A stretch of DNA of 38,416 bases. It comes from a virus. The stretch's first letter is position 1, and the number at the start of each line of letters is the position of its first letter. Under the pieces are notes generated by a model, which was not told the DNA's origin, did no database searches, and saw only the letters and a program-made list of their open reading frames with translations. Position numbers and translations under genes: made by a program. The stretch lies in the IMG/VR virus record IMGVR_UViG_3300025137_000100, positions 1-38,416 of that record. One strand, written 5' to 3'. Positions 6,903 to 17,427 of this stretch are shown piece after piece.

Positions 6903-8165
6903 TCATCCAAAGTAGTTTGCGATCTTCATCGGGCCAACCGCCTGATTGTTATCAATCGGATACATTTCGTGAATGAGATACCCCATTGCATCAGCCATGT
7001 GATCCAAGCCAGAAGCCTTGTCAGGCATACTTGTACCTTCTTTATAAATTAAGCCTTCAAGCGATTTAATGAGGTGTTTGCATCTGTGATCGACGAATAA
7101 GCGGCGGTCACCGTCACTATTGCAGAGCATCGCGTTGACCTCGTTGATGCGATCCACAACTGGTGGGGCTTTATTACTTGCCACTACGTCAAAACCGTAG
7201 CTTTCTAATATACTGAAATCTGTCTGCCCTACCGCCGCGCTGGTCTTTCTTGCCTTGCCGCTTGGGTCTGGATAGACAACCATCTGCCTGTCATTATAGC
7301 GCGTTTTTAACGCTTGTGCCATCATATCCGTATTTGCATCAGCAATCGACAGTTCATCAATCACCCATAGCTCTTTTCCAGCCTCTACGCAGATAGCCGC
7401 CGACATAGGATTAATGTTGAAATCCATGCCAATGTGCAAAGTGCCGCCAGTGTCCTCACATTCCGCAGTATTAAATGATCTCTCAAACGCATGATAAACG
7501 CGCCCACCTTGCGTTTCGAATGATGCCTCAAACTCCTGTCTGAACAGCCGTTCATCCATGCTACGCTTGGCGGCTTCGACTTCTGACGCTGCAACTCTGC
7601 CGCCCTCGACTGTTTTAAATCTAAAACTTTCCCAATCGTCTTGTTCGCCAGAGCCATTATACAAGTCATAAAACCAATTGTACCCCTTTGGCGTTCCGCA
7701 AAATACAGCCCTTGAACCAGTTCTATCTGCCATTGCTGGCCTTAAAACCGCAGTCCATGTTTCGGGATTTACGTCTTGGACTTCATCAACGACCAGAAAA
7801 TCAAGACCAACGCCACGCAGAGAGTCGGGATTATCAGCACCGCGCAAAGCAATAATAGAACCATTAACCAACTCAATTCTGAGGTCGGTTTCGTCTTTTT
7901 TTTGCACTTCGTGGGCTGGCACATGATCTTTTAAATCTCGCCACATAATTTGTCGCGCCATTCGATATGTAGGCGCAACATACCAGCACACGTTGTGAGC
8001 GTTTGACCTAGCGCGTTGATACAACATAAAGCGCGACAAGAACGATTTACCAGTTCGCCGCCCTGCGACCAGTACACGAAAGCGTGTGCGCGATTGTGCA
8101 ACCAGCATTTGTGGGCGCGATAATCGGACAACCGCCTCACTGGTTAGTGATTGCATCAAGGTCAA
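6903..8165 (-). CDS. terL: Terminase large subunit
   Basis: 420 residues. ATPase motifs: Walker A GRRTGKS at 35-41, Walker B FLVVDE at 123-128, coupling motif FCGTPKG at 155-161. The C-terminal RNase H-like nuclease begins with HIGMDFN (D238). It packages DNA into the prohead through the portal encoded next door, and cuts the concatemer. The start overlaps the end of terS by 29 bp; an in-frame ATG at 8156 is an alternative start. The short spacer and the compact nuclease fit Terminase_6-type enzymes. Confidence 0.92.
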   Translation of the reverse strand: MTLMQSLTSEAVVRLSRPQMLVAQSRTRFRVLVAGRRTGKSFLSRFMLYQRARSNAHNVCWYVAPTYRMARQIMWRDLKDHVPAHEVQKKDETDLRIELVNGSIIALRGADNPDSLRGVGLDFLVVDEVQDVNPETWTAVLRPAMADRTGSRAVFCGTPKGYNWFYDLYNGSGEQDDWESFRFKTVEGGRVAASEVEAAKRSMDERLFRQEFEASFETQGGRVYHAFERSFNTAECEDTGGTLHIGMDFNINPMSAAICVEAGKELWVIDELSIADANTDMMAQALKTRYNDRQMVVYPDPSGKARKTSAAVGQTDFSILESYGFDVVASNKAPPVVDRINEVNAMLCNSDGDRRLFVDHRCKHLIKSLEGLIYKEGTSMPDKASGLDHMADAMGYLIHEMYPIDNNQAVGPMKIANYFG

Positions 8166-8532
8166 TAACTTCGCCTTCTATAACAGGTGCTTCAATGCGC
8201 TGTGGTGCTATGTTAATGACTGTTGATGCTTCACTATTGTCACGCCATCCCATATGCACCTTTGACCAGTATATGCCAGCTTGTACGTTGCCTTTACACG
8301 CCGCTTTGAACAATGATGCAACAACTTGAACATTCGCTTGAACGCGCCCTGCTTTTAATTCTTCAGCATAATATTTTCGTAATGTTTTTAAATCTATTGT
8401 AAGACACTTCGCGGTATCTTCTTGGTTAAAACCAGATGCCATGCACAGCTTTACAAGGTTTTGTTTTTCGATTGTAACAGCGTGATTTTTACGCCCACGT
8501 TTGGCAGGGATTTTTTCAACATCTTTAGGCAT
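8137..8532 (-). CDS. terS: Terminase small subunit
   Basis: 131 residues from the preferred ATG at 8532, which sits in an ATGCCTAA overlap with the upstream gene; an ATG 7 codons earlier (8553) is also in frame. The protein begins with a basic segment, then a helix-turn-helix (SGFNQEDTAKCLTIDLKTLRKYY), a central helical part with GIYWSKVHMGWRD, and an acidic tail, as in many small terminases. It would recognise the packaging site and hand DNA to TerL. Confidence 0.8.
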   Translation of the reverse strand: MPKDVEKIPAKRGRKNHAVTIEKQNLVKLCMASGFNQEDTAKCLTIDLKTLRKYYAEELKAGRVQANVQVVASLFKAACKGNVQAGIYWSKVHMGWRDNSEASTVINIAPQRIEAPVIEGEVIDLDAITNQ

Positions 8533-8758
8533 GATACAAAACCCTTGTTTCATTCATTGTTCCGCAGCCTTTACACAAAGCCCAAATGCCGTTTGTACCA
8601 TCGTCTATTGAGGAATTTACTAAAATAACTTGGAACTCTGTTTCGTCGCAATCCGTACATTTCAGCAACGACATCGTATCGAACTCGTGTACAATTTTTC
8701 CCGAAACCGTTTTGGTTACTGGCATTTTTCCGATTGATACAACATTATCTTTTGTCAT
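8525..8758 (-). CDS. Small zinc-ribbon protein
   Basis: 77 residues with two CxxC pairs (CTDC near residue 34 and CKGC near residue 63), the pattern of a zinc ribbon. It is the first gene of the terminase operon and overlaps terS by 8 bp. A palindromic operator lies 27 bp upstream of its start. Its role is unknown; a DNA-binding or packaging accessory role is only a guess from position. Confidence 0.7.
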   Translation of the reverse strand: MTKDNVVSIGKMPVTKTVSGKIVHEFDTMSLLKCTDCDETEFQVILVNSSIDDGTNGIWALCKGCGTMNETRVLYHA

Positions 8759-14248: not shown

Positions 14249-14641
14249 TTACGAGTTTTCGGCTTCTTCATTTAAAATTCCTTTAATTTCACGCCAATTC
14301 GGTTTTGTGCCGCCGTGATAGGCCACCGCATGGCCCTCTTTAATTAGCTGTTCGTTGATATTTTTACCCTTCACCTCAAGCGTTCCAAGAATTCGCCCGA
14401 ACTTTCCTTTGGCATCTTTTTCAGTTCGTAGTTTAAAAGTTGGTGGTAAAAGTTCTAAAAGCCGCGATTTCGCGGCCTTTCCCAATTCTTTTTCCCAGAG
14501 GTCTTTTGTTCGACTTTCGGGGGTGTTTATTCCGTACATTCGCACACGCTCATGCACCCAAACATCAAAGCCTAGATCAACCTCAACATCAATCGTATCG
14601 CCATCGACAACACGCCTTAATTTGCAGTTGTACTCGTACAT
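14249..14641 (-). CDS. Staphylococcal-nuclease-like (SNase) nuclease
   Basis: 130 residues, close to the catalytic core length. VVDGDTIDVEVDLGF opens the OB fold with the metal-binding Asp, RVRMYGINTPES gives the catalytic Arg and Glu, and KGKFGRILGTL gives the second catalytic Arg. A Ca2+-dependent DNA/RNA nuclease is expected; no signal peptide is seen, so it acts in the cytoplasm. It starts one base after the upstream stop, in the operon led by the Lys-rich peptide and ParB-like genes. Confidence 0.85.
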   Translation of the reverse strand: MYEYNCKLRRVVDGDTIDVEVDLGFDVWVHERVRMYGINTPESRTKDLWEKELGKAAKSRLLELLPPTFKLRTEKDAKGKFGRILGTLEVKGKNINEQLIKEGHAVAYHGGTKPNWREIKGILNEEAENS

Positions 14642-14930: not shown

Positions 14931-15105
14931 CGTTAATTTCCTTTAATTCTGGGGTTGGTAATAAAATCTCATAAAGATGAATAATTTCACTTCGAAAACC
15001 AGAAATTACTTTATCGTCGTTTGGATGCCGCGCCTTTTCGATTGCAACCAACATTTTAAGCCGCCCAATTCTTGCCCAAATTTTGCGCTGCGGTTCTGGA
15101 ATCAT
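14923..15105 (-). CDS. Hypothetical helical protein, 60 aa
   Basis: Short helical protein (QRKIWARIGRLKMLVAIEKAR, EIIHLYEILLP) coupled to the ABC/GNAT gene by an ATGA overlap and to the next gene by an 8-bp overlap. No family recognised. Such tight coupling inside the module favours a real gene. Confidence 0.6.
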   Translation of the reverse strand: MIPEPQRKIWARIGRLKMLVAIEKARHPNDDKVISGFRSEIIHLYEILLPTPELKEINDA

Positions 15106-16217
15106 GTCGCGCCAACATATTCAAAACTAAAAGTTCTAACTTTCTGACGAAAACCACCTTTTCTTGTCATGCTACCAGTTGGGTTTCGCTGACTTTTTGA
15201 AGTATTATTGTGAATACTTTTCAATTTCCAAACTGGGCTTTTCGCCATCGCTTTGTAAACTGGAATACTGCTAAATTTAGCTTGTGCGGTGTAACCTTTT
15301 TTAACCATCATTTCAGCAGTAATTTCAATAATTCTCATACCCATACCAAACCCCACATAATCGGGGTGAATAACTGTACGATTTGAGTGCATAACTTTTG
15401 GTTTTCTAGAAGTTTTCTTCCACGGCACATAATTAGCAAAGCATTGGAAACCAATTTGCACACCTTCAAGATACAAACCGTAAGTTTCAATGTGACCGCC
15501 AGCTAATTTGTCGCTTAAATAATGATACTTGCTAAAGTTTTTCCACGTTGATCTGTCACATTCTGCAATGTCGAATTTGATTTGCTCTTTTCGTTCGTAA
15601 CTACATCGAAGTCGCCTCCGATCTTCATAGCGTTCTTTATTGCAATCAATTACCCAATCAGGATTTAACCACTCAAAAACATCATAATGACATGAAATTA
15701 AAACAATCTTTTTTTCGTATTTTCGCGCAAACTTTTGAACACAATGCGCCATGACTTTTGCCACATTCCGATCCACAACAGACGTAAATTCATCAATAAC
15801 CACAAACGGTTTCTTGGAACACATTTGTAAAGCAGCTTCCGCTCTTGCTTTTTGACCATTCGACAATGCCCCAGCTGGTTTTACCCAACATGGAACTTGA
15901 GATAATCCTATTCCAGTTAACGCATGAACACATTCATCATAACTCATTGACGTTGGAAATTGTTCAATGACTGGTTTTTTTAAATCTAAAAGTTCATCAA
16001 AGCAAGCTGGCCCAAAAATTTCGTGCGCTAAAGTTGTTTTTCCAGAACCAGAAGCACCAATAATTAGACCCACATTAAAATCAGTTTGAACATCTGCATT
16101 AATTGCCATTTTATGGGTCAACTTACTTTCAATTGGTAAATCTACTGATTGAGCGGCTTTAACGCTTCGAAATCCAGACGGTGGGTCGCTTTTTAAATTA
16201 ACTACAAAATTTTGCAT
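15102..16217 (-). CDS. ABC-type ATPase fused to GNAT-like acetyltransferase (COG2401-like)
   Basis: 371 residues. N-terminal ABC ATPase: Walker A GASGSGKTT (54-62), signature LSNGQ (118-122), Walker B PFVVIDE (137-143) and switch His in ISCHYD (H177). From about 215 the chain changes to a GNAT-like domain with WKNFSKYHYLSD (about 225-235) and the acyl-CoA site region TVIHPDYVGFGMGMRI (301-316). This architecture is that of COG2401, and the C-terminal part recalls Mu Mom-type acyltransferases that modify adenine in DNA. No membrane segments are seen, so it is not a transporter. It overlaps the ParB-like gene by 16 bp. DNA base modification or protection is inference from this pairing. Confidence 0.75.
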   Translation of the reverse strand: MQNFVVNLKSDPPSGFRSVKAAQSVDLPIESKLTHKMAINADVQTDFNVGLIIGASGSGKTTLAHEIFGPACFDELLDLKKPVIEQFPTSMSYDECVHALTGIGLSQVPCWVKPAGALSNGQKARAEAALQMCSKKPFVVIDEFTSVVDRNVAKVMAHCVQKFARKYEKKIVLISCHYDVFEWLNPDWVIDCNKERYEDRRRLRCSYERKEQIKFDIAECDRSTWKNFSKYHYLSDKLAGGHIETYGLYLEGVQIGFQCFANYVPWKKTSRKPKVMHSNRTVIHPDYVGFGMGMRIIEITAEMMVKKGYTAQAKFSSIPVYKAMAKSPVWKLKSIHNNTSKSQRNPTGSMTRKGGFRQKVRTFSFEYVGAT

Positions 16218-16741
16218 TCAACACCTTCTTTTTCAGCTTTGTGAAACCACGTTTCCAAATCCATTTCGGTTTCAAAAGTTAAAAGTAATTCGTGACGAAG
16301 TTCGGCGGTGCTTTCGTCATTTGTATGATCTTCGTCGTTTAAATTTAAAAAACGAGCTAATTCAATTTCATCAAAGAGCGTATCTGAAAGATTAAAATCA
16401 TCGTTCATTAAGTCCGTTAATTCGTCAGTCAACATTGGGAAATCCCAACGACTTTCTTCCGCGCTACGATTATCTGCCAGCCGATAGGATTTTTTTTCGT
16501 TTTCAGAAAGACCTTCTGCAACGTGAACAGGAATTTTTTTCATACCCAATTTTTGAGCCGCTTGCAGTCTTGTATGACCAGCTAAGATTATTCGGTCAGT
16601 ATCGACAACGATAGGAGAGCGAAAACCATATTGTTTTATTGATTTAGCTACCTTCGATATTGCATCTGGCGTGATCTGACGAGGATTTTTCTCGTAAGGT
16701 TTCACTGTGTCAATTGGGTCAATACTGACCGAATAACTCAT
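16202..16741 (-). CDS. ParB/Srx-like domain protein
   Basis: 179 residues. The N-terminal ParB-like nuclease fold is clear: KPYEKNPRQ (14-22), the GHTR motif (55-58) followed by LQAAQKLG, and SYRLADNRSAEES (85-97). The usual chromosomal ParB centromere-binding helix-turn-helix region is missing; the rest is acidic. In phages such domains commonly accompany DNA methyltransferases or other DNA-modifying enzymes. Here the partner is the ABC/GNAT protein (16-bp overlap). It is coupled upstream to the Lys-rich peptide by ATGA. Confidence 0.8.
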   Translation of the reverse strand: MSYSVSIDPIDTVKPYEKNPRQITPDAISKVAKSIKQYGFRSPIVVDTDRIILAGHTRLQAAQKLGMKKIPVHVAEGLSENEKKSYRLADNRSAEESRWDFPMLTDELTDLMNDDFNLSDTLFDEIELARFLNLNDEDHTNDESTAELRHELLLTFETEMDLETWFHKAEKEGVECKIL

Positions 16742-16833
16742 TTTTTCTTTCCTTTAGGTTTCTTTTTCATGGGTGTTTTAGTAGATTTCATGCTTGATGC
16801 AGAAAGTTTTTTGGTTGACTTGCCGTATGCCAT
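16738..16833 (-). CDS. Lys-rich peptide, 31 aa
   Basis: ATG at 16833 with AAGGA 10 bases upstream; 31 codons to a TGA in an ATGA overlap with the ParB-like gene. Twelve of 31 residues are Lys, ending in KKKPKGKKK, with Ser/Thr spacers, like a histone-tail or DNA-compacting peptide. Clear binding site and coupling support translation. Function unknown; DNA or RNA binding is likely from charge. Confidence 0.65.
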   Translation of the reverse strand: MAYGKSTKKLSASSMKSTKTPMKKKPKGKKK

Positions 16834-16923: not shown

Positions 16924-17115
16924 TTGACATATACAGTTAAATCCGAACCGATCCAATGGCATTTAAAAACAAGCAGATATGATTACTGCCCTGATTGCCA
17001 TGCGCGGTTGATTTATATTAGCCAATTCGTGCGAAACTGCGACTTGTGCTTTCAGTTTTTTAAATTACGAACCCCCATTTGCGAATGGGAAGAGGAACAT
17101 GGGGTAGACAAATAA
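16924..17115 (+). CDS. Small zinc-ribbon protein, 63 aa
   Basis: TTG start with a GAGGTGA binding site 6 bases upstream, directly after the operator at 16899. Two CxxC pairs (CPDC near 22 and CDLC near 39) form a zinc ribbon; the rest is aromatic-rich. Rightward, upstream of the HTH gene at 17155, with that gene's promoter starting within its last codons. Function unknown. Confidence 0.6.
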   Translation: MTYTVKSEPIQWHLKTSRYDYCPDCHARLIYISQFVRNCDLCFQFFKLRTPICEWEEEHGVDK

Positions 17116-17134
17116 TATGCTTTCCGCATATATT
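17105..17134 (+). promoter_or_regulatory. Rightward promoter with spacer palindrome
   Basis: -35 TAGACA (17105-17110), 18-bp spacer, -10 TATATT (17129-17134). The spacer holds the perfect palindrome ATATGC-TTTCC-GCATAT (17115-17131). It drives the HTH gene at 17155. Confidence 0.6.
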
Positions 17135-17154
17135 AAAAATAAACGGATGGCAAA

Positions 17155-17427
17155 ATGAGCAAAAAGAAAAAACTAACAAAAGCAGAATTAAAACATATCG
17201 AAAAAGAAGAATTTTTTAAAATTGTAAGGAATATTTTTCCACAAGGAACGCAACATAAATTTGGAAAATATGTTGGCGTGAGCCAAGGCACCATTTCAAA
17301 ATGGCATCAAGGCATCTTACCTGTTCCATACTATGCAAAAGTAATTATGGCGCACTTAATGGAACGGAACGAGGGCGGTTTTGATCCGTTCCTTGACGTG
17401 GAAAGCTATTTTAAAGATCAATCTTGA
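17155..17427 (+). CDS. Helix-turn-helix repressor-like protein, 90 aa
   Basis: A Lys-rich N-terminus (SKKKKLTKAELKHIEKEEFF) is followed by KFGKYVGVSQGTISKWHQGILPVPYYA, a Cro/CI-type helix-turn-helix. Its own promoter contains one of the ATATGC-N5-GCATAT palindromes, so this protein is a candidate for the factor that binds this class; that link is inference. It runs rightward and its 3' end overlaps the primase-helicase 3' end by 10 bp. Confidence 0.7.
   Translation: MSKKKKLTKAELKHIEKEEFFKIVRNIFPQGTQHKFGKYVGVSQGTISKWHQGILPVPYYAKVIMAHLMERNEGGFDPFLDVESYFKDQS

What the first reader, a model, noticed from the sequence alone, without database searches (positions are those of the whole stretch)
15102..16833. 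Coupled Lys-rich peptide, ParB-like protein and ABC-GNAT fusion: possible DNA modification module
Three overlapping genes: a 31-aa peptide with 12 Lys, a ParB-like domain protein without the usual helix-turn-helix, and a COG2401-like ATPase-acetyltransferase. In other phages ParB-like domains accompany methyltransferases; here no methyltransferase is seen, and the GNAT domain recalls Mu Mom, which adds an acyl-derived group to adenine. The set could modify phage DNA (anti-restriction) with ATP-driven target selection. SNase follows in the same operon and could degrade unmodified DNA; this is speculative.
Basis: partly seen in the sequence, partly recalled or inferred. Interest (0 to 1): 0.7.

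Follow-up and report, generated by a model that had tools for sequence, protein, structure and literature searches.

The report
ParB-guided phage DNA base-modifying enzyme pair
This phage carries a two-gene set, a ParB-like protein and an ATPase fused to an acyl-transferring enzyme, that very probably attaches a chemical group to bases of the phage's own DNA; the enzyme type was predicted before but apparently never tested, and relatives in cultured phages make it easy to test now.

Summary
The ParB-like gene (16202-16741, -) sits directly before the ABC-GNAT fusion (15102-16217, -) in 113 of 117 phage loci and 66 of 77 bacterial-genome loci. The fusion models as an ABC ATPase plus a true GNAT fold, with an invariant His-Tyr and Arg shared with Mu Mom.

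The strongest new evidence is a gene slot. The 80 nearest ParB relatives in viral contigs lie just upstream of terminase (59 of 59 with room). All 76 with a visible partner carry a DNA-modifying gene there: N6A/N4C or C5 methyltransferases, Mom, TET-associated glycosyltransferases (or a TET/JBP oxygenase), or ABC-GNAT. ParBs 80-89% identical carry different enzymes. So ABC-GNAT is most likely a nucleobase N-acyltransferase and ParB its shared DNA-loading partner.

The ABC-GNAT prediction is published (Iyer 2013, as cited in PMC7824862). I found the ParB slot and active-site match in no paper, but the library is partial. The Lys-rich peptide and SNase are not conserved parts. Base and acyl group are unproven. 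Cultured relatives (Leptospira LE3/LE4, Lactococcus P335, Pasteurella Pmp13) make it directly testable.

The parts
15102..16217 (-). ABC ATPase (about residues 1-205) fused to a GNAT acyltransferase (about 210-371); proposed ATP-gated DNA nucleobase N-acyltransferase
   Evidence: phrog_11143 E 6e-79; AF2 pLDDT 84.8; ABC half Z up to 14.5; GNAT alone pLDDT 81.6, Z up to 12.6; Walker A/B, signature, H-loop and H232, Y233, R280 invariant in 145-146 of 146 homologues
16202..16741 (-). ParB-like protein, ParB_N domain without a detected helix-turn-helix; proposed DNA-loading partner of the acyltransferase
   Evidence: PF02195 E 1e-8; phrog_620 E 8e-48 and the ParB part of ParB-methyltransferases (phrog_498) E 4e-41; upstream of ABC-GNAT in 113/117 phage and 66/77 genome loci
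16202..16217 (-). 16-base overlap of the ParB end and the ABC-GNAT start (translational coupling, inferred)
   Evidence: sequence; overlaps of 16-22 bases are the commonest arrangement in relatives
16738..16833 (-). 31-aa Lys-rich peptide, probably translated, not a conserved part of the module
   Evidence: ribosome-binding-like AAAGGA and ATGA overlap with ParB; no relative in other loci or in phage records (low-complexity filter on)
14249..14641 (-). SNase-like nuclease downstream; neighbour only, not a conserved part
   Evidence: PF00565 E 8.5e-13; no relative in any other ABC-GNAT locus
8137..8553 (-). terminase small subunit: usual downstream neighbour of the module in relatives, about 6.5 kb away here
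   Evidence: phrog_309 E 7e-10; relatives beside ABC-GNAT in other phages
6903..8165 (-). terminase large subunit
   Evidence: phrog_2 E 1.6e-48

Best explanation
The two genes encode a DNA nucleobase N-acyltransferase system that acts on phage DNA before packaging. The ParB-like protein loads or slides on DNA and brings in the enzyme. The ABC domain (a functional ATPase by its motifs, expected to dimerise) gates or times the reaction. The GNAT domain transfers an acyl group from acyl-CoA to an exocyclic amine of a base, most likely N6 of adenine by analogy with Mom, with cytosine N4 next. Shown here: the domains, folds, motif conservation, near-obligate gene pairing, terminase linkage, and the fact that the same ParB family is paired with other DNA-modifying enzymes in the same slot. 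Inferred: DNA as substrate, ParB as loader, timing, and benefit (probably evasion of restriction). Guess: the base and the acyl group.
For: Pairing: ParB directly upstream in 113/117 phage and 66/77 genome loci. Slot: of the 80 nearest ParB relatives, 4 end at a contig edge and 76 of 76 others have a DNA modifier as partner: 46 fused and 3 separate N6A/N4C-type methyltransferases, 3 C5 methyltransferases, 9 Mom, 8 TAGT glycosyltransferases, 1 unassigned gene (glycosyltransferase-like by eye) plus Tet_JBP oxygenase, 6 ABC-GNAT. Internal control: in 513 kb around these ParBs, 74 modifier ORFs were found; 72 lie in the slot, 1 more overlaps its edge, 1 lies elsewhere. Terminase follows in 59 of 59 with room and in 57 of 71 phage ABC-GNAT representatives. 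ParBs 80-89% identical carry different enzymes, and ABC-GNAT ParBs branch with methyltransferase ParBs with good support. Named phages with ParB overlapping a Mom gene: Microbacterium Antuna, Arthrobacter Wyborn; ParB, methyltransferase, terminase in Weissella WCP30. Active site: His-Tyr invariant in 146/146 ABC-GNATs and 14/14 Moms, absent at that site in RimI; Arg invariant in 145/145 and at the equivalent Mom strand. CoA loop G289/G291/G293 kept.
Against: No nucleoside chemistry is known to me for any member. Over its whole length the GNAT domain is nearer to ordinary protein GNATs (profile score 51.5 with RimI) than to Mom (32.0), so a protein substrate is not excluded. Mom does not need an ABC ATPase, so the ATPase's role is unexplained. 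In this window the module is about 6.5 kb from terminase. The window's own ParB is a long, poorly placed branch of the tree. About half of the bacterial-genome representatives had no terminase match in the next 4 kb.
Confidence: 0.8

Rival explanations
1. The GNAT domain acetylates a protein (terminase, a host factor or RNA polymerase), with ParB and the ABC domain directing it at DNA-bound targets.
For: GNAT domain scores higher against RimI than Mom; best solved-structure matches are acyl-CoA transferases and RimI; gene sits beside terminase.
Against: The same ParB family partners methyltransferases, Mom, TAGT and TET/JBP, all of which act on DNA bases. RimI lacks the invariant His-Tyr shared with Mom.
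Confidence: 0.12
2. ParB plus ABC ATPase form an SMC-like or partition/packaging factor that organises DNA near the terminase site; the GNAT part is regulatory.
For: ParB is homologous to CTP-dependent ParB/Noc clamps; the ABC half has a weak SMC_N match; terminase linkage.
Against: The ABC half has no coiled-coil arms and matches transporter-type ATPase domains best; the partner slot is otherwise filled by DNA-modifying enzymes.
Confidence: 0.05
3. One reading: Lys-rich peptide, ParB, ABC-GNAT and SNase form one modification-plus-degradation system.
For: The genes are co-directional and tightly packed in this window.
Against: Neither the peptide nor SNase has a relative in any other ABC-GNAT locus.
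Confidence: 0.03

Closest known systems
ABC ATPase-GNAT predicted DNA modification system (Iyer et al. 2013, cited in the jumbo-phage survey PMC7824862, example Tenacibaculum phage pT24)
   Same: Same protein family: pT24 is a direct hit of this window's protein (32% identity over 80%); same predicted role, acyl modification of a DNA base.
   Different: The cited passage does not mention a ParB partner, the terminase-side slot or the His-Tyr/Arg match to Mom; the 2013 paper itself could not be read, so it may contain some of this.
Phage Mu Mom (adenine N6 modification)
   Same: GNAT superfamily; invariant His-Tyr and strand Arg at equivalent places; in other phages Mom is paired with the same ParB family.
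   Different: No ABC ATPase in Mom; this domain keeps a canonical CoA-binding loop and is nearer to ordinary GNATs in profile comparison.
ParB-methyltransferase fusions of phages (phrog_498)
   Same: ParB part homologous over residues 9-144 (E 4e-41); same place before terminase.
   Different: Fused rather than separate, and methyl transfer rather than acyl transfer.
tRNA cytidine acetyltransferase TmcA/NAT10 (from own knowledge)
   Same: ATPase and GNAT in one protein acting on a nucleobase exocyclic amine.
   Different: RNA substrate and a helicase-type, not ABC-type, ATPase; no homology was tested.

Membership tests
ABC ATPase superfamily | Walker A, LSxGQ-type signature, Walker B with catalytic Glu, H-loop | tested here: met
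   G54-K60, L118-S119-G121, D142-E143, H177 invariant in 145-146 homologues; fold Z 14.5
GNAT superfamily | GNAT fold | tested here: met
   domain alone: Z 11-12.6 against many solved GNATs
GNAT superfamily | acyl-CoA-binding glycine loop | tested here: met
   G289 100%, G291 96%, G293 93%
Mom family (phrog_1384) | clear sequence relationship to Mom | tested here: inconclusive
   profile alignment score 32, probability 34%, pairwise E 4e-4; Mom among many GNAT fold matches
Mom family (phrog_1384) | conserved His-Tyr and Arg (H58, Y59, R111 of the 241-aa ORF; importance recalled from literature, paper not held) | tested here: met
   H232, Y233 146/146 and R280 145/145; His-Tyr in 14/14 Moms; R280 aligned with R111
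Mom family (phrog_1384) | modified adenine in virion DNA | not testable with these tools
   needs mass spectrometry
Predicted ABC-GNAT DNA modification system | ABC ATPase coupled with GNAT, homologous to the pT24 example | tested here: met
   (H36, H37) and passage in PMC7824862
ParB/Srx superfamily | ParB_N domain with conserved G-x-x-R pocket | tested here: met
   PF02195 E 1e-8; G55, H56, R58 conserved; Noc E 3e-13
Chromosome/plasmid partition ParB | helix-turn-helix DNA-binding domain | tested here: inconclusive
   no HTH model hit in Pfam, though the profile aligns weakly through Noc's middle domain
Chromosome/plasmid partition ParB | ParA partner and parS sites | not tested
   the adjacent ATPase is ABC, not ParA; parS was not searched
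COG2401 | membership by COG profile | not testable with these tools
   no COG library on hand; no held paper names it

The most novel reading that the evidence does not exclude
Phages use one family of ParB-like clamps as a general loader for chemically unrelated DNA-modifying enzymes, encoded in an exchangeable slot before the terminase genes so that DNA is marked just before packaging. ABC-GNAT is the ATP-gated member of that set and makes an N-acylated base not yet known in DNA.
Probability: 0.35. Interest if true: 0.85.

Novelty: new member of a known kind. Interest (0 to 1): 0.62.

Why it matters
A family predicted in 2013 to acylate DNA bases has, in the papers I could search, no experimental test. 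The gene-slot evidence turns that prediction into a specific one, names the missing partner (ParB), and points to cultured phages whose DNA can be analysed at once. If ParB proves to be a general loader for DNA modifiers, it would explain why ParB-like genes recur in phages that need no partitioning, and the slot becomes a way to find further modification enzymes.

Tried and rejected
Rejected: SNase and the Lys-rich peptide as parts of the module. The peptide search against phage records found nothing, but BLAST's low-complexity filter would hide it. A first profile comparison with six near-identical Mom sequences was too shallow and was repeated with 14 diverse ones. A search for Mom in 274 gammaproteobacterial genomes gave only fragments. 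That survey therefore samples the nearest 80 ParBs, not all. ParB evolves somewhat faster than ABC-GNAT (at 70-80% ABC-GNAT identity, ParB median 52%). The whole-model fold search of solved structures returned only ABC domains, so the GNAT part was modelled alone. Iyer 2009 and 2013 and the Mom structure-function paper could not be read.

Full report
WHAT IS THERE. The window is a whole 38,416-base virus record, a tailed phage. On the - strand run a 31-aa Lys-rich peptide (16738-16833), a 179-aa ParB-like protein (16202-16741) and a 371-aa ABC-GNAT fusion (15102-16217). The peptide has a plausible ribosome site and an ATGA overlap with ParB; ParB overlaps ABC-GNAT by 16 bases. The only Pfam family found in the ParB-like protein is ParB_N. 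Its PHROG matches run beyond that domain to residues 144-157 and include the ParB part of ParB-methyltransferases (phrog_498, E 4e-41). The fusion matches phrog_11143 nearly whole and an acetyltransferase family at its end. No methyltransferase motif was found in the gene-length ORFs of the window.

FOLD AND ACTIVE SITES. AlphaFold gives a confident model of the fusion (pLDDT 84.8). The first 200 residues match ABC ATPase domains (Z up to 14.5). The last 167 residues, modelled alone (pLDDT 81.6), match solved GNAT acyltransferases (Z up to 12.6). Across 146 fused homologues, made non-redundant at 85% identity, the ABC motifs (Walker A, LSxG, DE, H-loop) are invariant, so the ATPase is probably active. 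In the GNAT part H232, Y233 and R280 are invariant and the CoA loop G289/G291/G293 is kept.

RELATION TO MOM. Mu Mom and 13 relatives all carry His-Tyr at the same place in the sequence, before the strand that bears a conserved Arg; 18 RimI proteins lack the His-Tyr there. hhalign pairs this domain's N279-R280 with Mom's N110-R111. From memory these Mom residues are among those reported as needed for activity; that paper is not held. Over the whole domain the profile is nearer to RimI (score 51.5, through the CoA loop) than to Mom (32.0), while Mom and RimI score 14.1. So it is a canonical GNAT that shares Mom's catalytic signature. I do not file it as a Mom.

IT IS A TWO-GENE MODULE. Relatives occur in 81 phage records, over 100 viral contigs and 80 loci of bacterial genomes, at least half of them with terminase nearby. 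A ParB-like gene lies directly upstream in 113 of 117 phage loci and 66 of 77 genome loci with room, usually overlapping by 16-22 bases. In Lactococcus P335 the ABC and GNAT parts are separate genes in the same order. Pseudomonas phage nickie has ParB, ABC and, two genes on, a diverged GNAT. The peptide and SNase have no relative in any other locus.

THE SLOT. The pair sits shortly before terminase in Pmp13, LE4 and P335, and a terminase gene follows within 4 kb in 57 of 71 phage representatives (median distance 404 bases over all loci with one). In the window the distance is about 6.5 kb. I then asked what the nearest 80 ParB relatives carry, whatever their partner. Four end at a contig edge. 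All 76 others have a DNA-modifying gene as partner: 46 fused and 3 separate N6A/N4C-type methyltransferases, 3 C5 methyltransferases, 9 Mom, 8 TET-associated glycosyltransferases, 6 ABC-GNAT, and one locus with an unassigned gene (glycosyltransferase-like by eye) followed by a Tet_JBP oxygenase. Terminase follows in 59 of 59 with room. As a control I searched all ORFs in these 513 kb for the same enzymes: 72 of 74 lie in the slot, one overlaps its edge, one lies elsewhere. ParBs 80-89% identical carry different enzymes, and on a tree the ABC-GNAT ParBs branch among methyltransferase and Mom ParBs, several times with strong support. Named phages show the same thing: ParB overlapping Mom in Microbacterium Antuna and Arthrobacter Wyborn, ParB before a methyltransferase and terminase in Weissella WCP30.

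HOW IT PROBABLY WORKS. Every other occupant of the slot belongs to a family that changes DNA bases, so ABC-GNAT most likely does too. A GNAT with an intact CoA loop moves an acyl group to an amine; on DNA that means N6 of adenine, N4 of cytosine or N2 of guanine, and the residues shared with Mom favour adenine. ParB is homologous to the CTP-dependent clamps Noc and ParB; as the constant partner of unrelated enzymes it is best explained as a DNA loader or slider. The ATPase may gate access to a flipped base. The place before terminase suggests modification shortly before packaging. Shown: anatomy, conservation, linkage, exchange of partners. Inferred: substrate, loader role, timing, anti-restriction benefit. 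Unknown: base, group, sequence specificity.

WHAT WAS KNOWN. The jumbo-phage survey PMC7824862 states that a GNAT coupled with an ABC ATPase was predicted earlier (Iyer et al. 2013) to acylate a DNA base, naming phage pT24, which is a direct relative. I found no experimental test and no statement of the ParB slot in the papers searched, but the 2013 paper could not be read and subscription journals are mostly missing.

LIMITS. The ParB survey covers the nearest 80 sequences, whose 76 with a partner collapse to 40 at 80% identity. The tree rests on about 150 columns and places the window's own ParB poorly. No chemistry has been done.

Noticed in passing
L367:823-3478: ParB followed by an unassigned 278-aa gene (glycosyltransferase-like by eye), a Tet_JBP oxygenase and terminase small subunit: a possible complete hypermodification cassette in the same slot.
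   Followed up: partly
L310:4752-6567: Between ParB and terminase lie a histidine phosphatase/cytidylyltransferase fusion and a TAGT glycosyltransferase, suggesting a dedicated sugar-nucleotide supply for DNA glycosylation.
   Followed up: no
L369 (Acinetobacter baumannii plasmid pA52-1) 4339-7056: 147 Acinetobacter plasmid records carry a relative of this protein, about half of it (the ABC part) in the rows seen; in the one examined (110 kb, with terminase and portal genes) it lies next to a ParB-like gene, with an unassigned 317-aa gene two further on, perhaps the GNAT part as in phage nickie.
   Followed up: partly
L037:1201-2375, L038:4965-6139: ABC and GNAT parts lie in two reading frames overlapping by about 220 bases; a frameshift (programmed or an error) or a recent split.
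   Followed up: no
L043:5905-7077 (phage pT24): The published example of the ABC-GNAT system is annotated as two ORFs broken inside the GNAT domain.
   Followed up: no
L044:6001-6678 (P335) and rows H7-H17: Many phage records label the ABC part 'iron siderophore transporter' and the ParB part 'DNA modification methylase'; both names look like annotation carry-over.
   Followed up: no
window 16924-17427 (+): Two small + strand ORFs, one with an HTH-like match, interrupt the - strand operon between the primase/helicase and the module.
   Followed up: no
L046-L125, for example L115, L104, L090: Relatives of ABC-GNAT are frequent in Planctomycetes and Nonomuraea genomes; about half of the genome representatives had no recognised terminase in the next 4 kb and may be non-prophage copies.
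   Followed up: partly
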